Source: Cerasicoccus frondis
GTDB lineage: Bacteria > Verrucomicrobiota > Verrucomicrobiia > Opitutales > Cerasicoccaceae
Reading direction: 5' to 3'
DNA: 64,000 nt
NCBI GenBank assembly: GCA_031296915.1
Contig: JAVDPC010000022.1
Location: forward strand, 48,822 to 112,821
This document shows, in pieces, positions 11,704 through 47,530 of this stretch. Both the position numbers and the translations under genes were made by a program. Under the pieces are notes generated by a model, which saw only the letters and a list, made by a program, of their open reading frames with translations, searched no databases and had not been told where the DNA came from. Each line of letters opens with the position of its first letter. Positions within the stretch are counted from its first letter, which is position 1.

Positions 11704-11972
11704 GCGACAAGGAACGATTTTTTCTACTATTGGCGCAGTATCCGTTTGCCCAGAGGTTCTGGGACGATGAGGGACTGAATGTGCCAGCGCTCAAGCGTGC
11801 TGCGGGGCGTATGAGTCATGGCGAGCAAGTTATCGCTCGCTGCCTCTACGCAATTTGGACGCGCTCGGATGACGCCTTTGCACGAATCAATCTCACCGAT
11901 CTCGCTGGGGTGGTGGATGCGCATAACCGCAAACCTCTGGTTGAGTGGCTTGCAAACCCCTGTTGGCCATGA
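11700..11972 (+). CDS. Hypothetical protein (90 aa)
   Basis: ATGA overlap start. The product SDKERFFLLLAQYPFAQRFW is helical with the pattern RAAGRMSHGEQVIARCLYAI and ends with LVEWLANPCWP. It resembles small phage proteins of unknown role that accompany packaging genes. It is coupled to the recombinase gene that follows. Confidence 0.55.
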   Translation: MSDKERFFLLLAQYPFAQRFWDDEGLNVPALKRAAGRMSHGEQVIARCLYAIWTRSDDAFARINLTDLAGVVDAHNRKPLVEWLANPCWP

Positions 11973-13286: not shown

Positions 13287-15158
13287 ATGGACGAATTGGA
13301 CTTTGAACTGGACGACATTGACCTTTCGGATCTGAGCGAAGAGGAGCTGCGTGGTTTGGAGGCGGCTGCGGTTGCGGGTGACTGGGCTTCGTGGTTTGAG
13401 GTGCATGGTGAGATTGACGATGCGGGCGGCAACCGGGTGAAGCCGATGGCCAATTACTTGCAACGGGCGATCTCCGAGGCCGTCCGGTGGTTCAAGGAAA
13501 CGGGCCTTCCAATTCGGATACTCGTGCTCAAACCTCGCCAACGCGGATGCTCCACGTTCTCGACGGCGGGTCTTTACGTGGAGGCGAACAACAACCCGAT
13601 CAACTGCACGATCATTGGGGCCAAGGGCGACCAGTCGAAGAACCTGTATTCCAAGGTTGGCGTTTACTCAGGGTGTGATGGTTTCGACTGGGGCACAAAG
13701 CGCGACCTACAGACCGAGACGGGCAAGATCACTTTCCCCGATGGCAGGGAGTCATTGATTGGCCAGCTTTCGGCGCGTGAGTATGACCCAGGACGTTCGG
13801 GCACTTATCAGTTTGTATTGGCGACGGAAGTGGCGCGTTGGGCAGAGGACGGCGTGGCGAATGCGGCCAAGGTTCTATCCGGCCTGGTGAAGTGCGTAGC
13901 GACCAAGCCAGGGACATGCATCCTGATGGAAACGACGGCGGCCGGCGCAAGTGGCGACTTCTATGAGCGCTGGGGCAAGGCCTACGACATAGACGAGTTC
14001 CAGCGCCGTCATGCGGCAGGCGAAATGATGGCCGGTAAATACATCCGGGTTTTCGCTCCGTGGTTCGCCTTTGAGGAGCTATGCCATGATCTGACGCCAG
14101 CGCAGGCGGCCGAGGTGGAACGGACCTTGGGCACGAATCCGCGTTACACGTCCCCGGAGTTTGGCGACGAGCGTGAAATGATGGCGCGCTTCAGCCTGAG
14201 TCTGGGGCAAATCAGTTGGCGGCGTTATGCGATCGAGGAAGAATGCGAACGTGATGCCCGGATTTTCGAGCAGGATTACCCATCGACTTGGGAAACGGCG
14301 TTCCTCACTTCCGGGAACAAGCGGTTTAACTCGGTGGGCATTCGGCATTTGAAGCGACTGAGCCAGCAGCGAACTCCGGATTTGGGGTATTTGGAGTGGC
14401 AGAAGGGCGGCCGTGAAACTGGGCGTGTGGTCTGGCGCCCGACTGACGAATATGAGGGCATCATTTATCGTTGGGAGCAACCGACCGAGGGGATGCGGTA
14501 TTCGCTTGCGGTGGATACGATGCGTGGCGAAAGCCAGGATGCTGGGAAAGACCCAGACGCGCACTCGTTGCTGGTGCTCCGCGCTGGATATTTTGGGACT
14601 CGTGGTTGGCAGCCTCCAGCGGTGGTATGCCGGGTGAAGCCGCCGTGTCGCTGGGACATTGATTTGGTCGACGAATGGTGTCACCGGCTCTGGGCCTACT
14701 ACAACTGTTTGATCGTGCCCGAGGTCAACGGCCCGGGCTTGGCGTTGATTGAGCTGCTGAAGTTGTGGGGCGCTCCGATCTACCAACGAGAGATTTTTAA
14801 TCAGCGTGAAATGCGCCGAGAAAACGTTTATGGTTGGGAGACTACCACCAGAACGCGACCGATACTGGTGGAGGGACTTGCACGGGCAATTCGCGAGTAT
14901 GACCGCGCGGGCGACGGCATTGAACTTTGGTGTTCGCATATCGTCGACGAACTGAACGCATTTGTACGCAAGCCCAATGGTCGAGAGGAAGCAATGGACG
15001 GATCCCACGATGACGACGTGATTGGATTGGCCATTGGGCTGGCAACCATTGAGGGCGCGCAGGCCTATTATCCGAAAAATGATTTAGTCAGACTTCCCCC
15101 AGATGTTCAGCGATTGTTGGACGAGGATCGAGGTGGTCGCCGGGGGGCATGGAGTTGA
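13287..15158 (+). CDS. terL: Terminase large subunit
   Basis: 623 residues. The ATPase half has the Walker A-like KPRQRGCST at about residues 82-90 and a Walker B-like VLATEVARW. The nuclease half has an RNase H-like set: AVDTMRG, VPEVNGPG, and DGSHDDDVIGLAIGLA near the end. This is the motor that packs DNA into procapsids and cuts it. An acidic N-terminal tail (FELDDIDLSDLSEEE) may bind the small subunit. It is preceded by element B. Confidence 0.92.
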   Translation: MDELDFELDDIDLSDLSEEELRGLEAAAVAGDWASWFEVHGEIDDAGGNRVKPMANYLQRAISEAVRWFKETGLPIRILVLKPRQRGCSTFSTAGLYVEANNNPINCTIIGAKGDQSKNLYSKVGVYSGCDGFDWGTKRDLQTETGKITFPDGRESLIGQLSAREYDPGRSGTYQFVLATEVARWAEDGVANAAKVLSGLVKCVATKPGTCILMETTAAGASGDFYERWGKAYDIDEFQRRHAAGEMMAGKYIRVFAPWFAFEELCHDLTPAQAAEVERTLGTNPRYTSPEFGDEREMMARFSLSLGQISWRRYAIEEECERDARIFEQDYPSTWETAFLTSGNKRFNSVGIRHLKRLSQQRTPDLGYLEWQKGGRETGRVVWRPTDEYEGIIYRWEQPTEGMRYSLAVDTMRGESQDAGKDPDAHSLLVLRAGYFGTRGWQPPAVVCRVKPPCRWDIDLVDEWCHRLWAYYNCLIVPEVNGPGLALIELLKLWGAPIYQREIFNQREMRRENVYGWETTTRTRPILVEGLARAIREYDRAGDGIELWCSHIVDELNAFVRKPNGREEAMDGSHDDDVIGLAIGLATIEGAQAYYPKNDLVRLPPDVQRLLDEDRGGRRGAWS

Positions 15159-16150: not shown

Positions 16151-19100
16151 ATGAATGAATTCCGCACTGTTCTCAAAAAAGGTAAACGCCCGGTAGTAGC
16201 CCGTGATGACAAGCCAGTCATCCCTGGACACTTTGACAAAACTGCGCCCGAAGGAGGCACCCAAGGCAGTCCACGTGTTCGGGCCGTAGATACGGCAGAT
16301 CAAGAAACACAACGACCTGCAAAGCTTAATCCTGCGTTTGAACCGACAGGTGGGGTAACAAAAACTGAAGACTCAGAAGGACGTCCAGTTCTGATAGGGT
16401 CTAAGGCGAATGCAGATAATAACGTCCGAGTAGAACAAGATCAGAACGGTCGGCCCATTCTTCGTGGTAAAAACTCAACTGCCCAAACACTCAACGGTCC
16501 ATCGATAAGCGAGGTCCCAGGAGACAGTGTGCGTCATGCAGAGGCTGAAAAGCAAATCAAGCAGACACAGCCAAAGACCAGCGAAGATTTTCTTCCAGAG
16601 AAAACGGCACAGGACTCCCCTACTTCGGCTATTGCACCATCTCCGACGCCCTCAGAGATCAGTGAGCATGAACGTCGCATGCGAAACACCTTTTGGTCGG
16701 CACGGATGGACGACGCTGGGCGACAACGCGCGATGGGGCTTGCTCCAGGTGAACGTAGCGTGGTGAATCGCGGGGTGCGCGATGCGGCGCCGAATGCGCA
16801 GAAGCTCGCCAAGACCCAGTTTGAAATTTGGGCGAACACCGTAGGCGCGAAGACCTACACGACGGCCGATGGCGTAATGCGTCAATCAGTCGACGAAACG
16901 GGGCGGCCATTATTCACAGAAAAGGATATGGGCGTGATGCGCGACGGGGACGGCAAGCCGTTCCTCGCCCACCGCAACCAGTATGGCGAAACGGAATTTG
17001 AGCGGCCGAAGATTGTGGCGGCTGATGACCCGAATGACCCGCATTTCTACTATGACCTACCGGACGGCACGCGCGAACGGGCATTCCACGGCGATGATGC
17101 GCTGAACCACGAGAACCCCAAGGTACGCGTGGCGGCTGAAAAGGCCCGTGCTTCCCGCGAGAAACAGGTGGAGGGATCTGCGCTTGAGGTTGTGGATCGC
17201 CAAATAGCGGAAGTCGACCGTGAAGTCAGTGGTATGGAACTCGAATCTGCGGAAATAGCTAAGAAGCGAAATCGTGCAGAACGCGAACTACAGTTGTTTG
17301 GCAATTTGCCAGATAGCCCGAAGAAGGCTGCACGCGTCCCCCAAGTTCAAGCTGAGTTGGAGTCACTGAACGCCCGAGATCAGGAGATCATTCAGAGGAC
17401 AATGGAAGGTGGCGATCTTCATGCGCGGCAGCAGCAACTGAGGGCGGCGCGCAATGTCGTCAAAGCGGAAATTGAACTGGCAGCCTACGACGAAATCCAA
17501 GGGCGCATCGAAACCAACTCCAATCTGCCAAAGGCGTTAAAAGCCGAAATGCTGGCGAATATCGCAGAACAGCGACAGAAGCTAGGAATTGGAATGACTG
17601 AAGCCGTTGCAGAACAAGAACGGTTGAATGCGCTGGTGGAGCAAGGACGAAACACTGCAACATCCAGACTAAAAGCTGATTCCACCGATGCAGAATTTGA
17701 CCGTGAAGCAGACACCATAGCCAGCGCAGTTGCAATTTATGAGGATGAGAGCACACGCTTGGATGGCTTACTGAATGAACTCGAAGGCGGCGTTTTAACA
17801 CCAGAAGCCCATAACGCAAAGGTAGCAGAAGCACGCGAACTCCGGGATAGCCTACTTCGATTGCGAGGCTATATCGAATCCAAGGGCGCAAATTACAGCG
17901 ACGCAGCAAAAGCTGCAGGGGAAAAACACCTTTCAGATATGGTGGCCCAACTCGAAGCAGACATTGAAGCGGACCCTGGTTTTCTGGGGAGTTATGGCAC
18001 TGGAGCTATCGAGCAGGCTGGAAGCCGAATTGAATCAGGAAAAGAGCGCGTCGCACAGAGTTTTCAAAGCGAAGACAGTATCTGGAAATTTGGACTGACC
18101 AACCTTGGACATGGATCGGAGTCGATTGGCGCCGTGTTCGATATGTTCAAGGGAATGACAGCAGAAGATATTGAAAAACGTTCGAATGCGGCTCGAGCAC
18201 GGATGCTCATTGGAGATTTACGGGGCGAACAAGCTAAAACTGCGATGCGCAAAACGATTGAGTATGCGCAAAAACTTGAGGAGGGAGGGAACCTCGTAGA
18301 CCCCGTAAAGCTGGATTGGTCCAAGCCCCAGGACGCCCGAGAATTGCCTGTGCTCCAAGCCTTGGTCAATCAACTAAGGGATGCTGATACTAACAACGCA
18401 GATCGCGGGAACGTTGCGAGCAATGAGTTCCAAAAAACGCTATTTTCGACACTGAACCTCGTAAATCTAGTTCCAGGCGTTGACTACAGTTATGAGCAAT
18501 CGCAGATCGATCGGACTAACCCGGAAGAACTGGCAAAGTTCAATGCACTCCAACAGGAATATGCGCGGATAATCGAAGAGAAGTATCCGAATACCGCGCT
18601 TGCTGGCATGGTCGCTGGTTCACTGGGTCAATTCATGATGACCCGAAGAATGGGCAATGTCGCAGTCGGCAATCTGGCAAAGGTCAGTAAGATTGGAGAA
18701 GTGCTCAACCAAGGAAAACGACTTGAGCGCATTTCAGCAGGCTTGGGTTATGCGCAAATGGGCGTAGCACAAAGTTATTCAGAGAATCCGAATCAAATGA
18801 GTTTTCTGGATCGCTTCGCGGATGTGGGCTTGAAGGCAGCTACGTTGGCAGCGGCAGAAGGGTTGGGCAACAAAGCCGAGGCAAAATTTGGAAAACTGGC
18901 AGGCGCCCAAGCAACAACCAGCAACCTTCTACTACGTCAGGGAACCAATACTCTGGGCGCCTTCATCGGAGAAAATATTTCTGAATTCTCAGAAGCCTGG
19001 ATCAAGGGCGAGAACCCGATGGACCAGCTTGATCAGATTCTGAAGGGAAATGCTGGCGCCGTGCTTGGTATGGGACTGCTACACACACGTGGTGCAATTC

Positions 19101-22100
19101 GGACTCAAAAGGAATACCAAAACCTGAGCCGTCAACACGGTCAGGCAACGGCAGAAATGGCGAATCGGATCGCGGACATCAACACGCTAGCTTCGACTGC
19201 CCAAGGAAGTGATGCTCGCGCGATCCAAGCGCAGCGAGCTCTCTCAATGATACAACCAGGCGAAATTGAAGCTTTCAACCAGTTTGCCGCAACTGTGCTG
19301 GAAGGCTCCCCAGAACTGAAGGGACATAGCCTGGAAGAACGGGCGGTGAATTTGCAGGACCGCCACGAACGGGTGCTTTATGTCGGTCAGGTGGCCGAAT
19401 CCCTCCAACATCGGATGGCCCTGGGGCAGAATGTGTCTGAGGAGATAGCGGAAATTGAAAGCTATCAGCCAGCGGATGTGACCGGCGTTCAGGACTCCAC
19501 GCACGTGGACGCCTATCGTGATGGCGCCCGGGCGTTGATTCGTGCGGCCAATGGCGTGACCGGGGACCAGATGACCGAAGGCGAACAAGTTGGCCTGGGC
19601 ATCGTGGGCCAAGAACTCGGAACCTCGGCTATTCGGATGGTGGGCGGCAAGGCCGTGATCACCGATAAAGCGCGCGACTGGCTGCTAGAGCGCGTGCCTA
19701 GCGCGCAAGCCTTGCTTCCCCGTAGTGAGCAAGCGCAGTTGGAACGGATTCAGGAAGCGAGTTCGGTGACCACAGAGAGTGCGGAACAACCGAAAGCAAA
19801 GACCAAAGCCAAAGCAGGGCTGACAGTAAGCTTTACCGGGGATGATGGACAGGCAGACGAAACTCAAATCCCAAGCGGCGCCACACTGGCCAATGGCGAT
19901 CCGGTGACGGCGCGTAATGCAGCGCAATGGTTGGCGGAGGAAGGCATTGAAGCCCGCGATGTTGAAATACAGACGTCCGTGCCCAAGACGCCTAAACACG
20001 CCCCGGTGAAAATCGAAGGTAACCGAGTAAAGGCCTCCGACCTACTTCGGGAAATTGTCAACAATGCCCGCGTGGATGGCATTGAAATAGACGGCGGACG
20101 GGCCGTTGCCGTTGCACGAAACGTTGCACGCGATGTCAATGCAGCAATAGACAAGTATGCTCCTCTGTTTTCGGGCATTAGCATTCAACAAGGTGCTAAA
20201 GGGACTGGAGGCGTACAAACTGATTTGGGGCAGCGTTTGCTAGTGAATGTGACAGACCTCGTGTCTCCAGATAACGCTCAAAATCTAATCGATCCTGAGC
20301 GTCTTGAACTGCTAATTCAGGAAGAGGCAATCCATGCAGTCGCAACCTTGATAGTGCCTAAGCTAGAAGCTGCGCAAATATGGATTAAATTGCCAGACGC
20401 CACACAAGAGGTCGTCAGGAAGGTATACGAAGAAGGAGGGAGTCCTGCACAGGACTGGCAGCTTGGGCATGAGTTTCTACGGATGGTGGTGCAAGGTCGG
20501 ATCAATCTAGCGCAGGGCAAAGATAAGGTGACCAGTGAAGAACGTTTGTCGCCAAGCCTATTGCAGCGGATCGGCAAAGCCCTGGCACGTTTGCGCGATT
20601 ACTTCCGCGATCTACGTGGCAGCCTGAGCGCAGACGGCGCGGCGCCGGAAGTGGTGGACCTCGTGGAATCCACCGTGACGCAGATTGAAGAAAAGTTGCT
20701 GGAAATCGAAAAACCCGGTGACGTTTCCAATCTCGAACGTAAGGTAGTTGATGGACAATCCGATGGGATACAGCGAGGACGATCAACTGTTGCCGAGTCA
20801 ACCAGCACAAAAGCCGAAGACAATGCACCATCTAGTGGCCGAGATCCCGCCAGGAATGGCAATGGACTCTCAGACCCTCAAACTGTTCGGAGCCCTGATC
20901 GTGGAACTGAGCGATCAGATTCCAGCAAGGAACTAGAGCAGCGTCCCGCTGGACCGAAGAAGGCCAAGCCGAAGCGGAATGTGAATCGCAAGAATGTGCG
21001 GCCTGCTTTCCCGTTTACCACAGATGCCGATTCCTTTGACGTGATTGACCTATTGCAATCCGAAGGCGGACTGTTGGGCAAGACCCATGCCATCAAAGCG
21101 CAGAAGCAAGCAGGCAAATCCGCCAAGCTTCCGCCAGAGTATGACGGCTACGATGAAGCCTTTGGTAGCCGTAATCTGCACAAAGACCTGCTGCCACTCT
21201 ATCGCTACGATAGCCTAGTGACGTCTACCGGGCAGGCGCCAGACCAACTGACAGCATTGGCTGTGGAGCGCAACCTGCTGAATGAAGGCGCGGGTACGAG
21301 TGAATTCTTTGAGCTGGTGGCCAGCACGGCCAAGCGTCGCGCCACCGGACAGACCGAAGACGCTAAGGACCGCGATCAGGATTTTATTGAATCCGTGACC
21401 GAGGATCGCCCCGGTGGTGAAACCGTGAGCCCGGAGCAGTTGGCGATTGGCGACCGTTTCGAAGTCGAGGGTGAGGAGTTCGAGGTAACGGACATCGACC
21501 CGGATACGGGTGAAGTGGAAGTGAAAGACGGCCCACGCTTTGGCGTGCAGGACTTGCCTCCAGAAATGCCGCTGGTGATCGATGCCGGAAGCCTGGAAAC
21601 TGACACCGATGACGCCCCCGTCGAATTCCTGACGGATGAGGACTTTGAACTGGCTGGCCAGACCGAGGAGGAATTGGTTAGCGACCGTGAGCGCGAAGCT
21701 GAAAGCACCCGGAAAGAACAACAGCGCCAAGAGCTCGAAGAACGGCAAGCCAAACGCTTGGTGGGTGATGCGGGCGACGCCGCACAAGGCTCCCTATTTG
21801 ATGAGCCGGGAGAAACCGGCGAACTCTTTGCGCCGCCAACACCGAAACAAGTCAGTGAAAATCTGAAAGGAATATCCCGAGAAGCAAACCAGGCTTTGGA
21901 TAACGCTTTTGAGGGTCTATTCTCCCGCGCTAGCGACCAGCAAATGCGTGATTTCCTACTTGGTAAACCAATAATTGAACTGACTGGCGAGGAGTTCCAA
22001 CGTGATGGCAGCGGGATTTCGATCTTCAACAAGGTGGCAGCCTTTTTTGAAGGCATGGATGGCAAGTCCACGCATCCACAATTGGGCGACGTGATCCTAA

Positions 22101-25100
22101 ACCGCAACTCGGTGAAAAGCTCGTGGGCGCATGGCGCCGGAAGCTTGAAGGCTGCGGCGTTTGCCGCCGTGCCCGACGTTATCCAAAACGGCCGCATCAT
22201 TCACCAAAGCAAAAACTGGCGAGGTCGTGGTGAAGCCCGTGTGGTGCTGGCAGCTCCGGTGAAGATCGGAAGCGAAGACGTAATATTGGTTGTCGTGACT
22301 CGGCGCCAACAAGGACAGACCCGATTTTACCTACACGAGGCCTATACAAAAGAACGAATCCGAGGTGCGTTTAAGACTGGTTCCAGTGCCTCGGGTGAGG
22401 TTGAGATTTCCAGCGCTTCCTCGGATTCTGTATCTAATATACTCTCCCGCATTCTTTTCGTCAACCAAGATAAGGACGATGTGCTGGGAGCACGTACGGC
22501 AGACATGACGCAGAAGGGACTGCCCCCGGAGAAAATCGGGGCCTTCGTGCAAGCTGCGCAGGCTTTGATTGGCTCAGGCGTCAACACGCCAGAAGCCATG
22601 GCGCAAGTGCTGGAAACCAAGTTCCAAGGAAAAGCCGCCGCCTACTCTCAAGCATTGTGGGATGCATTTGGCATGGTGAACCCCGAACTACGGGGAACTC
22701 ATGACTGGAATAAAGCTCAAACAAAAAGCAGTGACAAAAACGAGCTTCAGCGTATAGTAGTCGAAAAGAAACCAACACTCAAATCGCGCAAATCGGATTC
22801 CAAAAATGAAAAAGGAACTCAGCCCCGAAGCTCTGAAGCAAAAGCAGTTGATCTCCAAGACGATGGGCGAACAGCCTACCGTATCGCTCAAGGAAGCCCA
22901 AGCCCAGACGCTCAAATTCAAGCACTCCGTGACGCCGGATACGAAGCCCAAGAGCCCGACAAAGAAAGCTATTTAGACGAGGGCTCGGAAGTCAGCGTTT
23001 ATCTTGACGGCAACCGAGTCTATAAGGTAACGCATGCAGGTGATTGGGGCATCTATCCCAAGGCAGAACGCGCCGCAGATGGGTCAGTATTCTTTGATAT
23101 TGGCGGGGAGTCAACCCCGGCACGCTTCCTAGAGCGCATTGCACTGCAGAATCACTATTTCGACGACAACAAAACGGTTTTTGAAGGTGTTCTCGCAGAT
23201 GGCCGGATGGTTGCATCCCAACCATACATTGTCGGGCGTCCAGCCACGTTTTACGAAATTGGGCAGACATTGCAGCGAGCGGGATTCACTCCCCTGCCTG
23301 GCCATCCAATTGATTGGGCACACCCAACGGACCATGTGATTTTGATGGACGCCCATGAGGGCAACTTTATCAGCACACCCCAAGGCGTGGTCGTGCCGAT
23401 TGACGTGGCCATTCACCAACTGCGGGGACGGCAAGTCAGCGCGCTGAAAACCCTGCTGGATGAAAACGAAACACTAGGGGCTCGAACGGATGGAAGTCAT
23501 CAAATAGATTTCTTCAAGGCTTTAGACGGTCGCACAAAGGCAAAATTGCCCAAGACGCCAAGCGGCAAACTGAACCGTTTGCAACTGGTGCAAGACAACC
23601 TGGGCTTGGCCACTGACATTGCGGTACGCTACTTCACCGTGAACAACAGCGCGCAGCATGACGACATCGTGCAGGAAGCACGGCGCGCCCTGATGAAGGC
23701 AGGACAGAAATTTGACGATACGGCAGGCACTCCATTTGCAGGCTACGCCGGGCGGGTAATTCGCAACCGCCTAAATGATCTCTACCGCAAGCAGAGCACG
23801 CAAAACAAGCGGGAAGGCTCCAGCTTGGACACACCGATTAACGAGGCTGGCGACACACTGGGCTCATTGATCGAAGGCGACGGACCCACCCCCTACGACC
23901 GAGAACAACGCGCCGAGCGCAAGCGCCTGCTGGGCAGTGCGCTGGCCAGCCTGAACGATGACGAACGCAAGTTGGCCTTTGCCTTTATGGCTGGCAGTTC
24001 GCTGGCCGAGATTGGGCGTCGTGAAGGTTTGAGCCGTGAGGGTATGCGCAAACGGATGAATAAAATCCTGGGAAAACTGAAAAACCAGATGACAGAGCAA
24101 GGGGTAGCACGTAATGATGTACTGAGCGCACGCGGCGACCTGCGACGTGCGTTGAAGAGTCCAGCATTGCAAAAAACGCCATCCGAATACACATTTGAAC
24201 CAACAGAGGCACCCAATGAGCAAATCCAAGCAGCCATCAACCCCCAGAAAATCCGACCAGTCGATTCGGCGCATTTACGTGCCCGACACCTCCCAGATGA
24301 AGAAACAACTGGCGCATCTATCCAATTCTACCAACGTGAAGGCAGTGACACCGAAGAAGGCTTCGTAATCCCTTCAATGCCCACGGTCATTTTCGTCAAT
24401 GCGAAGAGTGACCGCGCTCCCCTCGCCTGGACTTTGGCGCATGAATTTGCGCACATTGCCGAGAAGGATCCAAATTCAGGTTATGCCGAACTTGAGCAAA
24501 CGCTGCTGAATCTGATCATTCCCGAAGAGCGTGCTATTATTGTCGGGATGTTTGCCAAGCACTATGGGGAAACATCCCATGAGAAGGAAATCACCCCTTA
24601 TCTAATTGGGGATGTGATCAGCGGCTTCGATGTCATGGGTGTGGACCTACTGAAAAAAGCTGAGCAGATCAAAAGCGCGATCAATGACTACATTGAGTCG
24701 GCAGGGCCATTTAACCCACAGACATTAGCTGAAGGCAGCGATGATGATCTATCCACCTTGCTTTCCCGCCGAGACGATGCGGCGGCGATCAATGACTTCC
24801 TGCAGGCGTTGAATCTCCAAATCCCGAGTCAGTCCGACATCGATGAAATGTACCGGCAAGCCGGTCTGGAGGCTCCAGGCGCGCAGAGTATCGGGCGCCC
24901 TGATCTCGCGAATCCCGCCGAAGAAGAAACCGCGCGGCGTTTGGTCGACGCAGTGGACGAAGCGCGCAAAATGGAAGCTGAGCGCCAGACGCACGCGGAT
25001 TGGGCGGAGCAGGCGCGCGAACGCATTGCGCAGGACCGCGACGGCGTGAAGCGCAACCTGCTGGAAATGGCTGCTACTGGTCAAGGCATCAGCGACCCGA

Positions 25101-28100
25101 TAGACGTGAAGGCGGCGCAAATCCTCGTCAATGACCTGATCAAGCAGGCCACGGCTTCGGGAGACGCCCTGCAAATGCGGGAGGCGCAACAACTGACCTG
25201 GGCTTACCGCGAATCCGGCAGCGAACAAGCACGTGCATTTGCCGCCCGCCGAGATCCATTTAAAAAGCCTGCTGATCGCTACCGGGAGTTCCTAGCCAGT
25301 GTGATCTTCCACCCCAACGCCACGACTAAGGAACGTGTCAGTAAGGCCCTGAGTCCTTTGGAAAAATCCCGACTGATTGATGACCTGAAGGGGCAAATCA
25401 AAAGGGCTAAGGCACGAGGTGAAAACAAAACGCTAAAACGCCTGAATAAGGAACTGGCAGAAACTGAGGCCACGAAAGACAAAATGCAGCTCATGGCCGA
25501 CGAGAACAGCGGACGCCTGAAGCGCATTGAGCAGGCTCTAGCCAACATGGGCGTAACCCTGAATCATGTTTTTAACGGTGAAGCCTATCTGCGCCTGCGA
25601 GGCTCCAAGATGATTGGCAACGTAGTAAAGACACTGAACTACGATCAGGTGAAGCGCCAAGTGGTGAAGCTGAACCAGAAGCGTCTAAAATCCGAGGAGA
25701 TTGCCACGCGCCTGAATATCCCGCTGGATGAGGTGAAGCGCATCAAGCAGGACATGGAGCGTGCGATGCGGGAGAAGCTGGCCAAACTCGGTGACGCGGC
25801 GCTAGACTTGGAATCCTTTGACGATGAGGCCCTGATGGCGCGTGGTGACGAAGGCCTGAGTAAGGCGCAGCGCAAAGCCAAGATCGACGCAATCATCGCC
25901 GCCATGGGGCTGGATGACGCTGATACCGACACGCTGGCGCAGACGCGCCGGAAGCAACTGAAGCGCAGCCGTGTGAAGACTGGCAGGGGACGCAACAAAC
26001 GCACGGCTACCAGCCTGCAACGCTCCTTTGAAGATTATGATTGGGAGATCGACAAACCGCGCGCCAAGGACCGCCATCATGCGAAGCCCGCGCAGCGGGA
26101 TTTAACGGACCCAGATGGCCCGCCGATGTTCGACGTCAGTGACCCGGTGCAGGTGGCGCAGGTCGCACGGACACTACAATCTATAGATGGAGGGGGCTTT
26201 GATATGGCCTTTGAATTCTGGGTAAACTCCGTGCTCAGTGGGCCACTGACGCAAGGTCGCAATATTCTAGGTAATGCGTTGAACGCAGCATGGGATTTGG
26301 GATTCGAACGCTTGGGTGAAGCCATGCTGAATGCGACTTTGGCTAAATTCGGAATGGGTTCAGAAAATGCCCCTCAACTTGGTGAGTTCAGACATATGGC
26401 TCGTGGAATGTTACCAGGCATGGCAAGGGGAATTCGTAATGCACTGAACTCTTGGGCCGCAGAGACACCATTGTTTGCAAATGACGTCTTAAATCAACAA
26501 TTGGAAATATTGCCTGAATATTTCGACAAACAGGGAAGTATCCGGGCATCTATCCCTGGAAAAACTGGGAAGACTATCCGCATTCCTGGGCGTTTGCTTT
26601 TGTTCGCGGATGAGTTTTCGAAAAGTCTAATAGCGCAAGTGGAAGCTGGCGCCGTGGCCTACCGGATTGCCAAGGGTGAAGGCTTGGAAGGTGAAGCGCT
26701 CGAGCGACGTATAACCGGGCTGATCAACATGCCGGGCTCTGTGGCGTGGCACCAAGCCGCCGAGAAGGCAATAGAACTGACATATCAGGATACGCACGAA
26801 GAACGTAAGCAGGGATCATTTTTTAGCGTTTTTGAGGTATTTGGAAGAAGCTTCAACCTGATTAGTGCAAAAAAGAAAGGAGCTAATTGGGGCGATGTAT
26901 TAACAGGTATTAATTGGGGAAGAAGTAAAGTCCCCGGGGCGCGCTACATTGTACCATTTGTGACTTCGCCATTCAATATCCTCCTACAAGGAATAGGGAA
27001 GTCACCTATAGGAACCATGGGAGTGATCGCAAAGCTAAGCATGGCTTCTATGGTCAAGTGGAAAGACGGGGTTCCAATTGGACAGACATACCCCAAACCC
27101 AAGCTTGTACGTGATTTTACTCAACAAGTGATGGCATGGGCTGGGACTGCGTTGCTATGGGGAATTTCAGAGGGAGACGATGATGATGAGGATAAGTTCA
27201 TTTTAGTCACTGGTGGTCATTCAAGGACAAGTCAGGGAGCGAACGAATTAAAACAACGAACAGGAATGACTTCCTACACCATTCGCATTGGGAACAATAG
27301 CTTCAAATATGGCGGAATCGAGCCGTTTGCTACTACCATAGGCACTACGGTCGATCTCATTCGGTCGGTTAAGGCAGGTGTCCGCTCTGAAGACTCAGCT
27401 GGGATCATCGCATCAAGATTACCTATCGCGATGCTACAAAGTATCGCAAGCCAGTCCACCGAGAAAACCTTTTTGAAAGGCATTGGCGACATCGTTGAAT
27501 CAATGCAAGACGTAAACATAAATGAAAAAGGCGAAATCGACACAGGATATAAATTAGAAAATTTCGCTATTAATTTTCTGGCTTCTTGGGTGCCGAATAT
27601 AATCAAACAACCATTACGTGAAATCGATTCAAAATACAGGGAGACAGATGCTGATAGTCTTGGAGAATCTGTTCTACTGAGAATGTTTCCGATGCTGGCA
27701 CCACCATCGGTGAACGTATATGGCGAAGAAGAAATCAAGCAAGGCAGTAGCATTCTCAGGCCGATTTTCCCAGTAACAATTGGTGAGGCTCCAAAGATAA
27801 GAAAAGTAGATGCTATGCTTCTTCGATATAATCGTAATCTACCTGATGGAGCAAAGGCTTGGGCGCCAGCACCAACCCAGCGCTACGTAACAATCAATGG
27901 CGAGCGGATTGACCTGAATCCCAAGCAACTGCAAGCATACCGGGAACGCTCGGGGCAACTGTTTACAAACCTGCTCAAGGGCATGAGCTTTAACTATGAA
28001 AACCCGACCGAGGGTGACATTGAGAAAGTCCAACGAGCACTACGGCTAGCTCGGGAAACCACCAAACGGCAAATGCGATCTTCTTTGCTTGCCGAAAAGT

Positions 28101-28102
28101 GA
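16151..28102 (+). CDS. Giant polyvalent protein (3,983 aa): nuclease, kinase, sigma70-like and zincin domains
   Basis: One frame of 11,952 bases. Order by residue: disordered basic N-terminus (1-170). Coiled coils (about 330-620). Hydrophobic, glycine-rich segment (about 815-980). Degenerate zincin-like EEAIH at 1391-1395. PBECR-type nuclease-like domain (about 1940-2110, SSWAHG with H1994, then AAVPDVIQNGRII). Polyvalent-protein kinase (about 2265-2440, Lys2292, D2400-A-H-E-G-N2405, D2418). Sigma70-like segment (2477-2650). HEFAH zincin (2764-2768). HTH-like EEIATRLNIPLDEV (about 3180). Conserved C-terminal region (about 3345-3760). Such polyvalent proteins (described by Iyer and Aravind) are thought to enter the cell with phage DNA. 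Its place between terL and portal fits an ejected virion protein. Confidence 0.85.
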   Translation: MNEFRTVLKKGKRPVVARDDKPVIPGHFDKTAPEGGTQGSPRVRAVDTADQETQRPAKLNPAFEPTGGVTKTEDSEGRPVLIGSKANADNNVRVEQDQNGRPILRGKNSTAQTLNGPSISEVPGDSVRHAEAEKQIKQTQPKTSEDFLPEKTAQDSPTSAIAPSPTPSEISEHERRMRNTFWSARMDDAGRQRAMGLAPGERSVVNRGVRDAAPNAQKLAKTQFEIWANTVGAKTYTTADGVMRQSVDETGRPLFTEKDMGVMRDGDGKPFLAHRNQYGETEFERPKIVAADDPNDPHFYYDLPDGTRERAFHGDDALNHENPKVRVAAEKARASREKQVEGSALEVVDRQIAEVDREVSGMELESAEIAKKRNRAERELQLFGNLPDSPKKAARVPQVQAELESLNARDQEIIQRTMEGGDLHARQQQLRAARNVVKAEIELAAYDEIQGRIETNSNLPKALKAEMLANIAEQRQKLGIGMTEAVAEQERLNALVEQGRNTATSRLKADSTDAEFDREADTIASAVAIYEDESTRLDGLLNELEGGVLTPEAHNAKVAEARELRDSLLRLRGYIESKGANYSDAAKAAGEKHLSDMVAQLEADIEADPGFLGSYGTGAIEQAGSRIESGKERVAQSFQSEDSIWKFGLTNLGHGSESIGAVFDMFKGMTAEDIEKRSNAARARMLIGDLRGEQAKTAMRKTIEYAQKLEEGGNLVDPVKLDWSKPQDARELPVLQALVNQLRDADTNNADRGNVASNEFQKTLFSTLNLVNLVPGVDYSYEQSQIDRTNPEELAKFNALQQEYARIIEEKYPNTALAGMVAGSLGQFMMTRRMGNVAVGNLAKVSKIGEVLNQGKRLERISAGLGYAQMGVAQSYSENPNQMSFLDRFADVGLKAATLAAAEGLGNKAEAKFGKLAGAQATTSNLLLRQGTNTLGAFIGENISEFSEAWIKGENPMDQLDQILKGNAGAVLGMGLLHTRGAIRTQKEYQNLSRQHGQATAEMANRIADINTLASTAQGSDARAIQAQRALSMIQPGEIEAFNQFAATVLEGSPELKGHSLEERAVNLQDRHERVLYVGQVAESLQHRMALGQNVSEEIAEIESYQPADVTGVQDSTHVDAYRDGARALIRAANGVTGDQMTEGEQVGLGIVGQELGTSAIRMVGGKAVITDKARDWLLERVPSAQALLPRSEQAQLERIQEASSVTTESAEQPKAKTKAKAGLTVSFTGDDGQADETQIPSGATLANGDPVTARNAAQWLAEEGIEARDVEIQTSVPKTPKHAPVKIEGNRVKASDLLREIVNNARVDGIEIDGGRAVAVARNVARDVNAAIDKYAPLFSGISIQQGAKGTGGVQTDLGQRLLVNVTDLVSPDNAQNLIDPERLELLIQEEAIHAVATLIVPKLEAAQIWIKLPDATQEVVRKVYEEGGSPAQDWQLGHEFLRMVVQGRINLAQGKDKVTSEERLSPSLLQRIGKALARLRDYFRDLRGSLSADGAAPEVVDLVESTVTQIEEKLLEIEKPGDVSNLERKVVDGQSDGIQRGRSTVAESTSTKAEDNAPSSGRDPARNGNGLSDPQTVRSPDRGTERSDSSKELEQRPAGPKKAKPKRNVNRKNVRPAFPFTTDADSFDVIDLLQSEGGLLGKTHAIKAQKQAGKSAKLPPEYDGYDEAFGSRNLHKDLLPLYRYDSLVTSTGQAPDQLTALAVERNLLNEGAGTSEFFELVASTAKRRATGQTEDAKDRDQDFIESVTEDRPGGETVSPEQLAIGDRFEVEGEEFEVTDIDPDTGEVEVKDGPRFGVQDLPPEMPLVIDAGSLETDTDDAPVEFLTDEDFELAGQTEEELVSDREREAESTRKEQQRQELEERQAKRLVGDAGDAAQGSLFDEPGETGELFAPPTPKQVSENLKGISREANQALDNAFEGLFSRASDQQMRDFLLGKPIIELTGEEFQRDGSGISIFNKVAAFFEGMDGKSTHPQLGDVILNRNSVKSSWAHGAGSLKAAAFAAVPDVIQNGRIIHQSKNWRGRGEARVVLAAPVKIGSEDVILVVVTRRQQGQTRFYLHEAYTKERIRGAFKTGSSASGEVEISSASSDSVSNILSRILFVNQDKDDVLGARTADMTQKGLPPEKIGAFVQAAQALIGSGVNTPEAMAQVLETKFQGKAAAYSQALWDAFGMVNPELRGTHDWNKAQTKSSDKNELQRIVVEKKPTLKSRKSDSKNEKGTQPRSSEAKAVDLQDDGRTAYRIAQGSPSPDAQIQALRDAGYEAQEPDKESYLDEGSEVSVYLDGNRVYKVTHAGDWGIYPKAERAADGSVFFDIGGESTPARFLERIALQNHYFDDNKTVFEGVLADGRMVASQPYIVGRPATFYEIGQTLQRAGFTPLPGHPIDWAHPTDHVILMDAHEGNFISTPQGVVVPIDVAIHQLRGRQVSALKTLLDENETLGARTDGSHQIDFFKALDGRTKAKLPKTPSGKLNRLQLVQDNLGLATDIAVRYFTVNNSAQHDDIVQEARRALMKAGQKFDDTAGTPFAGYAGRVIRNRLNDLYRKQSTQNKREGSSLDTPINEAGDTLGSLIEGDGPTPYDREQRAERKRLLGSALASLNDDERKLAFAFMAGSSLAEIGRREGLSREGMRKRMNKILGKLKNQMTEQGVARNDVLSARGDLRRALKSPALQKTPSEYTFEPTEAPNEQIQAAINPQKIRPVDSAHLRARHLPDEETTGASIQFYQREGSDTEEGFVIPSMPTVIFVNAKSDRAPLAWTLAHEFAHIAEKDPNSGYAELEQTLLNLIIPEERAIIVGMFAKHYGETSHEKEITPYLIGDVISGFDVMGVDLLKKAEQIKSAINDYIESAGPFNPQTLAEGSDDDLSTLLSRRDDAAAINDFLQALNLQIPSQSDIDEMYRQAGLEAPGAQSIGRPDLANPAEEETARRLVDAVDEARKMEAERQTHADWAEQARERIAQDRDGVKRNLLEMAATGQGISDPIDVKAAQILVNDLIKQATASGDALQMREAQQLTWAYRESGSEQARAFAARRDPFKKPADRYREFLASVIFHPNATTKERVSKALSPLEKSRLIDDLKGQIKRAKARGENKTLKRLNKELAETEATKDKMQLMADENSGRLKRIEQALANMGVTLNHVFNGEAYLRLRGSKMIGNVVKTLNYDQVKRQVVKLNQKRLKSEEIATRLNIPLDEVKRIKQDMERAMREKLAKLGDAALDLESFDDEALMARGDEGLSKAQRKAKIDAIIAAMGLDDADTDTLAQTRRKQLKRSRVKTGRGRNKRTATSLQRSFEDYDWEIDKPRAKDRHHAKPAQRDLTDPDGPPMFDVSDPVQVAQVARTLQSIDGGGFDMAFEFWVNSVLSGPLTQGRNILGNALNAAWDLGFERLGEAMLNATLAKFGMGSENAPQLGEFRHMARGMLPGMARGIRNALNSWAAETPLFANDVLNQQLEILPEYFDKQGSIRASIPGKTGKTIRIPGRLLLFADEFSKSLIAQVEAGAVAYRIAKGEGLEGEALERRITGLINMPGSVAWHQAAEKAIELTYQDTHEERKQGSFFSVFEVFGRSFNLISAKKKGANWGDVLTGINWGRSKVPGARYIVPFVTSPFNILLQGIGKSPIGTMGVIAKLSMASMVKWKDGVPIGQTYPKPKLVRDFTQQVMAWAGTALLWGISEGDDDDEDKFILVTGGHSRTSQGANELKQRTGMTSYTIRIGNNSFKYGGIEPFATTIGTTVDLIRSVKAGVRSEDSAGIIASRLPIAMLQSIASQSTEKTFLKGIGDIVESMQDVNINEKGEIDTGYKLENFAINFLASWVPNIIKQPLREIDSKYRETDADSLGESVLLRMFPMLAPPSVNVYGEEEIKQGSSILRPIFPVTIGEAPKIRKVDAMLLRYNRNLPDGAKAWAPAPTQRYVTINGERIDLNPKQLQAYRERSGQLFTNLLKGMSFNYENPTEGDIEKVQRALRLARETTKRQMRSSLLAEK

Positions 28103-28128: not shown

Positions 28129-30315
28129 ATGCACAACGGAACGCACGAAGGAAAAAGACAACTTGAGCGAGCAGTAGAGCGCGCCGACAAGACCGTGGGG
28201 GAAAGCAAACCTGATCCTAATGGGCCGTTGATGCCATTTCCCACCAACTACCGATTAACCCAAGAGCAAGAGTCTGAACTGCTGGAACACGTGTTTGAGC
28301 AGATTGACACGCTAGAGCAAGACTTGGGACGCAACGAGGTGCTGGATGAGAACTGGCACCACAATGCGAACATTGACAATAAGAGTAAATTGACACGGAC
28401 CTTTATGGGAAAGCGTCGACTCTTTGAAGAAGTCTACCACAACCGGGTAGACTGGCGCTCAACCGTGATCGGGGGAATTTTTGCTGAATCGAATTTCGTT
28501 GTGCCTATTTCCCGCCGCATTTGCCGACAGGCATGGGCGCGCGCCAATAACTACTTTTTCGCCACCGACCCGTGGTTTGAAGCTAAGCCACGCGATATAC
28601 CAGACCAAGACCTGGCAGAGCGAATTGAGAGCTTTTGCAAATACAAGCTGCGCGAGGCTGGGTCGAAGCACTCCAAGGAGCAGGCGGTCGAGATCGCGGC
28701 CTATCGAAATGAGTGTGTTATCAAAACAACGCATGCCAGCAAGTGGGACTACTACCAGGTCGAAGATAAGGTGCTGGTTGATGAAGATGGTAAGCCGATT
28801 ATCGCCAAGGATGGCGACTACATAACGGAATCCGATGTGTGGGTAGAGATCACGCCACCCAGTGAGGTAGATGACGTGACACCAGCCGCAATCACTGTGC
28901 TACAGCGCGACCAAGTAACCCTGCGTCCAAAAGCGCTGGTCTACGTCAAAAAGTTGGTCACACGAAGGCTCAAAAGATACCACGGACCCAAGAGCAAACC
29001 AGTGTTCTTCACTGACTTCCTGTGTGCAGAAGACGCAGAGAGCATCCAGGACGCAGCATTCTGCGCCCACCTCTATGACGTGCCAGTGATGGATATGGTG
29101 GAAGAGTTTCAAGAGGCATTCGGAGGTGAATCGCCCGAAGACACTCAAGAACGCATTGCCCAAGGCGTCGAACTACTGCGCGAGCTAGCAAGCAACGACT
29201 CCAAGCCGAAATCTGGCGTCAACCGAATAGGAGATGAAGGCGAAGAGGTGGAGCATACAGCAGATGACGCCAACAACAACCCCGTGGCAGAGATAGCCGA
29301 GTGTTATCTGCGCTATGACGCCAACGGAGACGGGTTAACCGAGGAGATCATGGTAATCGTCGACCGGCATACCAGGCGGCCCATCTACTATGAATACACG
29401 GCGAACGTCACCGTGGATGGCGAGCGCCCCTTCGACACCGTGCGCTGGATCGAAGTAGAAGGCAAATGGCATGGCGTGGGCATGATGGAGCTCTTTGAGA
29501 CACACCAGAGCGTCATCGACCTGCAAGTAAACCGCTGGAACTTCGCACAAGGTGGTTCTGGCCGTGTCGATTTCTGGAATCCAAATGCCGTAGAGGAAGG
29601 CGATCGGGAGCGAAACCTACAGCTCAACTGGGGGGGGACCTATACCTTAAAGCCAGGCAAAAAAGCGGAAGACGCTCTGCAATCTGTTTACCTCAATGAC
29701 ATCAAGCATGAGCAGGTGCAGGCAATCTTCGAACTGTTCCTGCAAATGGCAATGAATGAAAGCGGGGTACAGAACGCCAACGACGCCAACATGGCGGGAT
29801 TGGAACAATCGAAATTGGCAACCGGAATCCGCAATATTGAAAAGAGCGGGATGGAAATATTTGGGGCATTTCTGTCCGCCCTCGAGCCTGGATTGGAATC
29901 GGCACTGAACCGAGAGCTACAAGTAGCGTTGGCGAACATCGACGAAGAGGAGGCATTTATGTCGCCAGCCGAGGATGATGACCGTCTGCTAACACTGACA
30001 CGTGAAGAGGTGGCAAACATCAACCTGCGTGTGAGTTTGCTTCTGACTCGTTACAAGGGCGAGCAACAGATACAGCAGGCTCTGCAGGCAACGGAGATCG
30101 TTGAGCGTTACTATGCCCTGCACCCTCTTGTGCAACGTCAGGTTGCCCCTCTTTACCGACAAATGCTAAAGGCGTTGGATATGAAGATCGACGCAGATGA
30201 GCTGATACAACCCATCGACATCCCCGTGGCCCCAGGGTCTGGACCAAACCTAGACGCTAATCAAGCCACAGCGGCTACAGCTCCCAAACCATCCACCCCA
30301 GCACTAAACTACTAG
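28129..30315 (+). CDS. Portal protein
   Basis: 728 residues, the size of P22-like portals. Portal-type features include FMGKRRLFEEVYHNRVDWRS, a central domain EIAECYLRYDANGDGLTEE followed by IMVIVDRHTRRPIYYEY, and KWHGVGMMELFETHQSVIDL with the wing-to-crown helices after it. The C-terminus is a helical, glutamine-rich barrel-like region and a proline/alanine tail. It forms the dodecameric DNA gate at one capsid vertex. Element C overlaps its leader, and the 91-residue gene follows at 2 bases. Confidence 0.85.
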   Translation: MHNGTHEGKRQLERAVERADKTVGESKPDPNGPLMPFPTNYRLTQEQESELLEHVFEQIDTLEQDLGRNEVLDENWHHNANIDNKSKLTRTFMGKRRLFEEVYHNRVDWRSTVIGGIFAESNFVVPISRRICRQAWARANNYFFATDPWFEAKPRDIPDQDLAERIESFCKYKLREAGSKHSKEQAVEIAAYRNECVIKTTHASKWDYYQVEDKVLVDEDGKPIIAKDGDYITESDVWVEITPPSEVDDVTPAAITVLQRDQVTLRPKALVYVKKLVTRRLKRYHGPKSKPVFFTDFLCAEDAESIQDAAFCAHLYDVPVMDMVEEFQEAFGGESPEDTQERIAQGVELLRELASNDSKPKSGVNRIGDEGEEVEHTADDANNNPVAEIAECYLRYDANGDGLTEEIMVIVDRHTRRPIYYEYTANVTVDGERPFDTVRWIEVEGKWHGVGMMELFETHQSVIDLQVNRWNFAQGGSGRVDFWNPNAVEEGDRERNLQLNWGGTYTLKPGKKAEDALQSVYLNDIKHEQVQAIFELFLQMAMNESGVQNANDANMAGLEQSKLATGIRNIEKSGMEIFGAFLSALEPGLESALNRELQVALANIDEEEAFMSPAEDDDRLLTLTREEVANINLRVSLLLTRYKGEQQIQQALQATEIVERYYALHPLVQRQVAPLYRQMLKALDMKIDADELIQPIDIPVAPGSGPNLDANQATAATAPKPSTPALNY

Positions 30316-38143: not shown

Positions 38144-39622
38144 ATGGCATACGAAATTGCACCTCCTAATACCGGCTCGGCTCTAGCCAATATGAGTCCG
38201 GAAAGTGTCCGCCAGCTTTGGCAAAAGACGGTGGACATGCACGACCAGAACGAAGACTGGTGGGCTAAGTTTGAAGGCCCCTCCCGCGATGCACCCATCG
38301 CTACCCGTACCGATCTCAGCAAAGGCGCAGGCCAAAAGGTAACCATCACCAATATGGCGGGCTTCTATGGCCCTGGCAAACAAGGTGATGAGCACTTTGA
38401 AGCCGCTACTGACTTCGAAAAGCTCCTGATCAACGCCTACAGTGTTGAAGTCGATTGGTTGCGCAATGCGTATGCCGTAACCGAGCGCATGGAAGAAGTC
38501 ATGGGTATGCGTGGTGAACTCAACGGTGGCGCTGCTGCGGAACTCGGCAAATGGATGGGCCGTCAGAAGTCCCACCGCGTGTTCATGACCTTCCGCGAGA
38601 AGGGCGATGCGCAGAACCTCGTGATTGCTGGCGGCAAATCTGGCGTGGACGAACTGCTTTCGGCCGATGTCCTCAACTACGACGAAGTCATTGGCCTTGG
38701 CGCTATCATCAAGCCGAATGGCGGACGCCCGGCACTGATGGGCCGCGCGAATGGACAGCCGGTGAAGAAATACAACATCGTCAGCACGGTCCCCGGCATG
38801 TTCAGCATGAAGCATGACGACGACTACCGTGAAGCGTTGAAGGAAGCCGGTGCCCGCGGCGATGCCAATCACCTGTTTAAGGGTGGCTACCCGGACATCG
38901 ATGGCCACGTGTTCCACGAATACGAAGCCATCGATCATGACGGCTTTGGCCCGGTTGGTTGCCCGATGGCTCCGAAGGCCTTCCTCGGTGAAGCAATTGC
39001 CGCTGGCACTGCAGTCTTCACGGTGAAGGGTGGTGGCAGTGCAGCAGCCGCAGCCCTGACCAACATCCTCTACTTCCAAGACTTCGCAGGCTACGCCTAC
39101 AAGTTCTTGGCAGGCGATGTTTTGGCCCCGGAAAATGAAACGCGCTACTTCCTAATTGTTAATCCGTCGAATGCCGCTGTCGATCCGAACAAGATCGGCA
39201 TGTATTCCTACACCGTGGGCAACGACGGCAACACGATCACCATCGTGAACCGCCTTGGTCCGGCTGACAGTGTCGCTCAAGTGGATTCGCTTGGCGACGT
39301 CACTTGGAATACTGGCGTGTGGGCGAACAAGCACACCCAAGTCCACCCAATTGGCGCGACGATCATCCCGTGCAACGCCAAGGGCGTGCCGATTGGTGAA
39401 ACCCTGATGCTTGGCGCCAGTGCCATGATCCGTGGTTACGGCAAATACAAGAACAAGCGCTCCAAGGAAAAGGCTGACGGTGGCCACGTGGAACGCCGCT
39501 ACATCACCTCGGTCTTCGGTCAAGCGCTTCGTCGAGACGCCCAAAGCCGCGCCCGTGGCTATGTGCGCCTGAAGCATGCGATTCAGTATCCCGAGCTGAA
39601 TTCTCTCCCGATTGTTGTCTAA
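38144..39622 (+). CDS. Major capsid protein (N4-gp56/DUF4043-like)
   Basis: 492 residues. It has the family-like segment DLSKGAGQKVTITNMAGFYG, then PGKQGDEHFEAATDFEKLL. The C-terminal RRDAQSRARGYVRLKHAIQY is also consistent. These are features of the N4-gp56/DUF4043 type of HK97-fold major capsid proteins of podoviruses. The local codon use is smooth and GC-rich, as expected for a highly expressed gene. A GGAG ribosome site stands some way before ATG. A hairpin follows the stop. Confidence 0.82.
   Translation: MAYEIAPPNTGSALANMSPESVRQLWQKTVDMHDQNEDWWAKFEGPSRDAPIATRTDLSKGAGQKVTITNMAGFYGPGKQGDEHFEAATDFEKLLINAYSVEVDWLRNAYAVTERMEEVMGMRGELNGGAAAELGKWMGRQKSHRVFMTFREKGDAQNLVIAGGKSGVDELLSADVLNYDEVIGLGAIIKPNGGRPALMGRANGQPVKKYNIVSTVPGMFSMKHDDDYREALKEAGARGDANHLFKGGYPDIDGHVFHEYEAIDHDGFGPVGCPMAPKAFLGEAIAAGTAVFTVKGGGSAAAAALTNILYFQDFAGYAYKFLAGDVLAPENETRYFLIVNPSNAAVDPNKIGMYSYTVGNDGNTITIVNRLGPADSVAQVDSLGDVTWNTGVWANKHTQVHPIGATIIPCNAKGVPIGETLMLGASAMIRGYGKYKNKRSKEKADGGHVERRYITSVFGQALRRDAQSRARGYVRLKHAIQYPELNSLPIVV

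Positions 39623-47331: not shown

Positions 47332-47530
<199 letters not shown>

What the first reader, a model, noticed from the sequence alone, without database searches (positions are those of the whole stretch)
23579..24100. A sigma70-type segment is buried inside a giant polyvalent phage protein
Residues 2477-2650 of the 3,983-residue protein read like a sigma70-family factor in order. Region 2 is LVQDNLGLATDIAVRYF, then DDIVQEARRALMKAGQKFD, then PFAGYAGRVIRNRL. The region 3-like linker is SLDTPINEAGDTLGSLIEG. Region 4 is LNDDERKLAFAFMAG, SLAEIGRREGLSREGMRKR. Polyvalent proteins are thought to enter the cell with phage DNA. If the segment is a working sigma factor, this phage would inject a transcription factor and capture host RNA polymerase at once, in contrast to N4, which injects a whole polymerase. 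I do not know of a described case.
Basis: partly seen in the sequence, partly recalled or inferred. Interest (0 to 1): 0.9.

Follow-up and report, generated by a model that had tools for sequence, protein, structure and literature searches.

The report
Sigma factor inside giant phage protein
A virus hidden in a bacterial chromosome carries, inside one enormous protein of a kind thought to be injected along with viral DNA, a recognisable sigma factor, the part that tells the cell's RNA polymerase where to start, and a few other very large proteins carry one too.

Summary
Residues 2479-2549 and 2597-2644 of the 3,983-aa ORF match Pfam Sigma70_r2 and Sigma70_r4 above cut-off, with a 3.2-finger-like stretch between and domain 3 missing. 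The ORF lies between terminase and portal in a 63-kb prophage bounded by 29-bp repeats of the tmRNA 3' end. Kinase-PolyVal and LPD3 mark it as a polyvalent protein.

It is not unique. Three other long ORFs (1,954, 4,188 and 896 aa, the last cut by its contig) hold an embedded sigma domain of the same family; a fourth shows region 4 at a contig edge. Sister prophages share the C-terminal scaffold with other cargo, so the sigma looks like a swappable module. Free-standing relatives lie near Ser/Thr-kinase genes in 7 of 11 contexts; here the sigma follows a kinase domain.

Packaging, injection, polymerase binding and promoter use were not tested; no promoter motif was found. The main text of the paper defining polyvalent proteins has no 'sigma'.

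The parts
16151..28102 (+). Giant polyvalent protein, 3,983 aa, ATG start, single open frame
   Evidence: GC 0.45-0.58 in 250-codon blocks, 0.53-0.55 around the sigma domain
23579..24100 (+). Embedded sigma70-type domain, residues 2477-2650
23585..23797 (+). Sigma region 2 (residues 2479-2549); motif DDIVQEARRALMKA
   Evidence: PF04542 E 3.8e-12; aligned with the host's own RpoD
23819..23896 (+). Region 3.2-finger-like stretch SLDTPINEAGDTLGSLIEGDGPTPYD
   Evidence: aligns with the SLETPI..lGdfIE stretch of SigA and SLQSPV..GDFIED of the host RpoD
23939..24082 (+). Sigma region 4 helix-turn-helix (residues 2597-2644)
   Evidence: PF04545 E 6.6e-7
22946..23413 (+). Kinase-PolyVal domain, residues 2266-2421, just before the sigma domain
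   Evidence: PF18762 E 1.6e-9, 38.4 bits, cut-off 27
22040..22330 (+). LPD3 (large polyvalent protein-associated domain 3), residues 1964-2060
   Evidence: PF18798 E 9.5e-9, 35.9 bits, cut-off 27
24377..24460 (+). Possible zincin-like metallopeptidase motif AHEFAHIAE (residues 2743-2770), just after the sigma domain
   Evidence: PF06114 E 0.11, 12.7 bits, below cut-off 22; similar HEFGH protein encoded next to a sigma gene in G409; fold model of the region unusable (pLDDT 42)
24785..28099 (+). C-terminal scaffold (from about residue 2879) shared with sister prophages
13287..15158 (+). Terminase large subunit
   Evidence: phrog_2 E 1.8e-12
28129..30315 (+). Portal protein
   Evidence: phrog_1216 E 2.6e-12
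38144..39622 (+). Major capsid protein
   Evidence: phrog_334 E 1.1e-15
46159..47331 (-). Integrase
   Evidence: phrog_1 E 1.6e-24
47480..47508 (.). Right attachment repeat, 29 bp, at the 3' end of the tmRNA gene; identical copy at G000:C22:33271-33299, about 15.5 kb before the window

Best explanation
This is a sigma70-family domain (sigma2, 3.2 finger, sigma4; no sigma1 or sigma3) carried as one exchangeable cargo module of a phage polyvalent protein. Most likely the giant protein is made late, packaged and delivered with the DNA. The sigma module, alone or after cleavage near it by the neighbouring zincin-like stretch, then binds host RNA polymerase core through region 2 and directs it to promoters that the housekeeping sigma does not read, so early phage genes start at once, while the adjacent kinase-like domain modifies host proteins or the sigma itself. 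Shown: the domain, the polyvalent domains, the prophage setting, the recurrence, the different cargo of sister proteins, the nearness of many relatives to kinase genes. Inferred: packaging, injection, cleavage, core binding, promoter choice, the kinase's role.
For: Sigma70_r2 and r4 above Pfam cut-offs; PDB sequence and fold matches to sigma factors. Region 2.2 keeps D..QE and LMKA of the host's own RpoD, while the WW of region 2.3 is replaced by RV; that these are core-binding and -10-melting residues is recalled, not from a call. Embedded sigma domains in three further ORFs found with the window segment alone: G302 (1,954 aa, E 2.1e-19), G474 (4,188 aa, E 2.9e-11), G345 (896 aa, contig edge, E 3.0e-10); Sigma70_r2 above cut-off in all three. 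Region 4 at the contig edge in G447, beside a portal and capsid 46% and 48% identical to the window's. The surrounding proteins differ: tblastn of the whole window protein matches G345 only in the sigma part, G302 in the sigma part and one scaffold stretch, and G474 not at all. Terminase-polyvalent-portal order in a sister prophage (G428) whose protein carries RadC. Kinase-PolyVal directly before the sigma; in G395 a free-standing sigma gene, an FHA-kinase gene and a Kinase-PolyVal gene follow one another. Injection of phage polyvalent proteins, zincin processing and 'jump-start transcription' are the published proposal for the class (PMC5512222, abstract and passages).
Against: No virion or expression data. 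No shared promoter-like dyad in 23 stretches upstream of simple ORF calls in the prophage: the most frequent dyad occurs in 2, as in each of 30 shuffles (low power). The prophage could be defective. In the three other embedded domains region 4 stays below its Pfam cut-offs (24.5 and 23.8 bits against 25.7 in G474 and G302, no region 4 match in G345, where Sigma70_ECF is above cut-off); the profile scores are partly circular because these sequences were in the profile. The E of the DxxQE motif is lost in two of them (DLQQK in G302, DRRQI in G345). The zincin match is below its cut-off. G302 and G345 lie on short contigs without phage genes seen, and the G474 protein has no polyvalent-specific Pfam domain. 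No embedded case in the viral contigs scanned or in the phage records measured. The embedded domains do not form a supported clade.
Confidence: 0.5

Rival explanations
1. The sigma domain is a decoy or competitor: it binds host core RNA polymerase after injection and takes it away from host promoters without starting phage transcription, a host shut-off module.
For: The region 2.2 motif is partly kept, while the aromatic pair of region 2.3 is missing (meaning of the residues recalled). No promoter motif found. Domains in the sister proteins include RadC, a ResIII/SNF2-like helicase and, weakly, a phosphoribosyltransferase.
Against: The region 4 helix-turn-helix and the 3.2 finger are kept too, which a pure decoy would not need. 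Loss of the aromatic pair is usual in alternative sigmas (recalled).
Confidence: 0.2
2. The module acts after phage gene expression has begun or in the lysogen: the giant protein is not injected but made in the cell, and its sigma serves late or lysogenic transcription.
For: The gene is in the structural-gene block, so the protein is presumably made late; presence in the virion is untested.
Against: A sigma inside a 3,983-aa protein is a costly way to do what a small separate sigma does; in 8 phage records measured the sigma-like match lies in an open frame of 192-564 aa. The place between terminase and portal, with Kinase-PolyVal and LPD3, fits the class proposed to be injected (PMC5512222).
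Confidence: 0.17
3. The sigma segment is a vestigial, non-functional insert captured from a host gene.
For: Free-standing sigmas of the same family exist in related hosts; the prophage may be defective.
Against: sigma2-linker-sigma4 without stops or frame breaks in four long ORFs, the other three about 30% identical to the window's, over about the same domain limits; a dead insert would hardly stay recognisable at such divergence.
Confidence: 0.1
4. The helix-turn-helix and region 2 serve only to bind phage DNA or to hold the giant protein on it during packaging or entry.
For: A second, weak sigma-region-like helix-turn-helix lies at residues 3166-3201 in the scaffold, and weak matches of the sigma profile occur downstream in sister proteins.
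Against: Region 2 is known as a core-binding and strand-separating domain (recalled); simple DNA binding would not need it together with a 3.2 finger.
Confidence: 0.05

Closest known systems
Polyvalent proteins of phages and conjugative elements (Iyer et al. 2017, PMC5512222; abstract and passages seen)
   Same: Giant multidomain protein of a prophage with Kinase-PolyVal, LPD3 and a possible zincin; different domains on related scaffolds; [quoted passage not shown]
   Different: No sigma domain there: 'sigma' occurs 0 times in the main text. Its figures and supplementary files were not seen
Phage N4 virion RNA polymerase and N4-like polymerases in polyvalent proteins
   Same: Giant virion protein that carries transcription machinery into the cell (start of the abstract of PMC4496689 in the listing; passages of PMC5512222)
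   Different: N4 brings a complete polymerase; here only an initiation factor that would need host core polymerase
T4 Alt, injected modifier of host RNA polymerase
   Same: Injected protein that redirects host polymerase (passages of PMC5512222)
   Different: Covalent modification, not a sigma factor
Small free-standing sigma70 factors of the same class of hosts
   Same: Same sigma2-linker-sigma4 family, 25-33% identity to the window domain; Ser/Thr-kinase gene near in 7 of 11
   Different: Separate genes in open frames of 203-418 aa
Phage-encoded free-standing sigma factors (jumbo phages group 2; PMC7824862, passages seen)
   Same: Thought to recruit host polymerase
   Different: Separate proteins, not part of a giant protein

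Membership tests
Sigma70 family (domain level) | Region 2 profile match above curated cut-off | tested here: met
   46.3 bits against 24
Sigma70 family (domain level) | Region 4 profile match above curated cut-off | tested here: met
   29.2 bits against 24.1; not met in the three other embedded domains
Sigma70 family (domain level) | Predicted fold resembles solved sigma factors | tested here: met
   37 chains at E <= 0.001; by title the 50 rows shown are sigma factors or sigma-containing complexes; pTM only 0.41
Sigma70 family (domain level) | Binds RNA polymerase core and directs promoter-specific initiation | not testable with these tools
   Needs biochemistry; motif kept in part
Group 1/2 sigma factor (RpoD-like) | sigma3 domain present between regions 2 and 3.2 | tested here: not met
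   Long gap against the host's RpoD between 2.4 and 3.2; the only r3 match is weak and at 3166-3201
Polyvalent proteins | Several unrelated domains in one very large protein, some of them specific to the class | tested here: met
   Kinase-PolyVal and LPD3 above cut-off, plus sigma r2/r4
Polyvalent proteins | Encoded by a phage, plasmid or conjugative element | tested here: met
   Prophage genes and 29-bp attachment repeats
Polyvalent proteins | Delivered into the host with the element's DNA | not testable with these tools
   Position beside terminase and portal is consistent only
Polyvalent proteins | Zincin-like metallopeptidase (frequent, not universal) | tested here: inconclusive
   HEFAH motif, PF06114 E 0.11 below cut-off; fold model unusable
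N4-like virion RNA polymerase | T7-type polymerase domain | tested here: not met
   No such Pfam or PHROG match in the protein at E <= 1

The most novel reading that the evidence does not exclude
Phages of this bacterial class deliver a ready-made sigma factor, fused behind a kinase, with their DNA. It captures host RNA polymerase before any phage gene is expressed, a third way of starting infection beside injecting a whole polymerase (N4) and relying on host promoters. The module was drawn from the hosts' own kinase-associated sigma family, so phage and host compete for polymerase with related factors, and the kinase may switch the sigma or block the host's own version.
Probability: 0.4. Interest if true: 0.87.

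Novelty: new variant of a known kind. Interest (0 to 1): 0.7.

Why it matters
How a phage without its own polymerase starts transcription at once is usually answered with host-type promoters. A virion-borne sigma factor would be a new answer, compact and testable with a fragment of about 190 residues. The recurrence in several long ORFs, the different cargo of sister prophages, and the shared ancestry with sigmas encoded near kinase genes turn a single odd ORF into a pattern with ready comparisons.

Tried and rejected
PHROG 351 first looked like evidence for other embedded sigmas (its profile is 928 long), but one search found it in 381 of 384 genomes at E <= 1e-10: it is the general RpoD-type family. 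Chance or mis-assembly: rejected, since the frame is open throughout, composition around the domain is like its neighbourhood, and embedded domains recur in other genomes. A separate internal sigma gene: no Shine-Dalgarno-like site with an in-frame start in the 400 bases around the domain's start. Promoter motif: none above shuffles. Viral contigs: the scans rest on short peptide patterns and found no embedded case (in one search, 6 loci, all ordinary sigma genes in frames of 193-297 aa); portal and terminase queries found no relatives there. Phage records: 4 records, best places in frames or genes of about 190-550 aa; records, of which I looked at 6 in all, open frames 196-564 aa. Five phages with a related terminase (5 of the 56 records) show no sigma-family match in the stretches fetched (for frames over 700 aa). 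Plasmids: none. Genome contigs: 2 loci, one of them the G302 contig already found, the other a short partial match. Order sample with the sigma segment at E <= 1e-6: 4 of 273, only G000 in a giant frame; with the C-terminal scaffold: 2 of 273, G000 and a weak G205 match. Family sample: 1 of 10, G000. Phylum sample with the family profile at E <= 1e-28: 2 of 259 genomes, G000 and G395, both in the same class (at most 12 candidates per genome were scored, so a lower bound). The tree does not decide whether embedded domains have one or several origins. Zincin fold model: pLDDT 42, not used. The host class is not named by any search; genome sizes and the kinase's published distribution suggest Verrucomicrobia, which I treat as a guess.

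Full report
What is there. Window 23579-24100 is residues 2477-2650 of an unbroken 3,983-aa ORF, 16151-28102. Pfam places Sigma70_r2 at 2479-2549 (E 3.8e-12) and Sigma70_r4 at 2597-2644 (E 6.6e-7), both above the curated cut-offs, with Kinase-PolyVal at 2266-2421 and LPD3 at 1964-2060 in the same protein. Sequence matches to solved SigA/RpoD chains cover region 2 in one piece and the 3.2 finger plus region 4 in another. An alignment with the RpoD of the same genome shows the sigma3 domain missing, region 2.2 similar (HDDIVQEARRALMKA against FLDLIQEGNMGLMKA) and region 2.3 changed (FAGYAGRVIRN against FSTYATWWIRQ). From general knowledge, the first is a main core-binding surface and the lost WW pair helps housekeeping sigmas to open the -10 element, so the factor would be of an alternative type. 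The AlphaFold2 model has confident helices on both sides and a low-confidence linker (mean pLDDT 75, pTM 0.41); in Foldseek against the PDB 37 chains reach E <= 0.001, and by title the 50 rows shown are sigma factors or sigma-containing complexes, with whole-model TM of 0.30-0.38.

Where it is. The gene lies between a terminase large subunit and a portal gene; major capsid, tail-fibre-like, repressor-like and integrase genes follow, and replication, recombination and methyltransferase genes precede. The integrase is next to a tmRNA gene. A 29-bp perfect copy of the tmRNA 3' end lies at G000:C22:33271-33299, which gives a prophage of about 63 kb whose left end is about 15.5 kb before the window.

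It recurs. In 384 genomes of the same class, the window's sigma segment matched 15 places in 13 genomes at E <= 1e-7. Four of the 15 lie in frames of 896 aa or more: the window (3,987 aa stop to stop), G302 (1,954), G474 (4,188) and G345 (896, contig edge). Pfam finds Sigma70_r2 above cut-off in the three others (29.6, 38.7 and 24.4 bits against 24), while region 4 stays just below cut-off in G302 and G474 and is not matched in G345, where Sigma70_ECF is above cut-off. The G302 protein also has LPD1, LPD3, LPD5 and ART-PolyVal, on a 6.3-kb contig without other phage genes seen. The G474 gene has a DnaB-type helicase gene upstream and tail-like genes downstream, but no polyvalent-specific Pfam domain. 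The G345 frame has only a sub-threshold DUF3560 match besides. A fifth, G447, starts at its contig edge inside region 4, followed by LPD3; its portal and capsid are 46% and 48% identical to the window's. The three full embedded domains are 30-31% identical to the window's.

It looks like exchangeable cargo. A stretch from about residue 2880 onward marks the scaffold; it occurs in 9 of 384 class genomes. Of these 9, sigma is seen in three (window, G302, G447 in part). In the other six neither the family profile (frames over 700 aa) nor tblastn of the window's sigma shows the domain, apart from weak helix-turn-helix-like matches; G519 has one sub-threshold 19-residue Sigma70_r4_2 match. What they carry: G428 RadC and LPD3, G425 a ResIII/SNF2-type helicase and a weak small-methyltransferase match, G519 a weak phosphoribosyltransferase match, G307 no Pfam match, G414 ART-PolyVal and MuF_C; G561 (432-aa frame) was not scanned. 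G428 keeps terminase, polyvalent gene and portal in order, with about 4.6 kb between the last two; in G307 and G519 the terminase lies upstream of the giant gene, and in G425 and G447 the portal follows it directly. G307 has only a weak portal match (E 1.4e-7).

Relatives. Eleven free-standing family members with surroundings were looked at (L050-L056, L083-L086). In 7 of 11 (L051, L052, L053, L055, L083, L084, L085) a Ser/Thr protein kinase gene lies on the same strand, in six of them within about 1.4 kb and in L052 about 5.5 kb away; in L050, L054, L056 and L086 none was found in the stretch fetched. L050 has a phage-type integrase gene nearby, so not every free-standing member need be a host gene. 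In G395 the order is sigma, FHA-kinase, Kinase-PolyVal, and the last is similar to the kinase domain of the window protein (E 4e-11; a weaker match in G504, E 1e-6). In G409 a protein with an HEFGH motif, similar to the zincin-like stretch after the window's sigma (E 2.6e-5), is encoded directly before the sigma gene. So kinase, sigma and zincin also occur together as separate genes. The tree leaves the number of captures open.

How it may work. The published view is that phage polyvalent proteins enter with the DNA, that zincin domains may process them and that some jump-start transcription, N4-like polymerases being the example; the same paper calls establishing transcription the primary challenge of phages on entry (PMC5512222: abstract and passages). 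A sigma module fits that need more cheaply than a polymerase. This chain is inference from position and domain content; nothing here shows packaging, cleavage or activity. The decoy reading (rival 1) is the main alternative, because the core-binding motif is partly kept while the melting residues are not, and because I found no promoter motif.

In print. Searches on polyvalent proteins with sigma, on injected or virion sigma factors, and on sigma with virion proteomes (listings only, with passages of PMC5512222, PMC7824862, PMC6102473 and PMC10892097) gave no report of a sigma domain in a polyvalent protein. In PMC5512222 'sigma' occurs 0 times in the main text; its supplementary files and figures were not seen. 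In PMC7824862 the passages shown concern separate phage sigma factors. The library lacks most subscription papers, so this is not proof of absence.

Noticed in passing
G000:C22:793-819 and 33271-33299: A third copy (27 bp) of the tmRNA end suggests a second integrated element in tandem to the left of this prophage.
   Followed up: no
30965-36934, minus strand: Three genes (1171, 163, 660 aa) run against the structural block between portal and capsid genes and match nothing in PHROGs (E <= 0.001) or Pfam (E <= 0.01); perhaps a cargo cassette.
   Followed up: partly
25646-25753 (residues 3166-3201): A second weak sigma-like helix-turn-helix in the scaffold (PF04539 E 0.0073, below cut-off); weak sigma-profile matches also occur in sister proteins.
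   Followed up: partly
L055:3561-6292 (G395) and L083 (G504): Operon-like order of sigma, FHA-kinase and Kinase-PolyVal-like gene.
   Followed up: partly
L056:3635-5390 (G409): Neighbouring zincin-like (HEFGH) and sigma genes, the same pair as inside the window protein.
   Followed up: partly
11945-12592: DNA-invertase/serine-recombinase-like gene (phrog_125) in the prophage.
   Followed up: no
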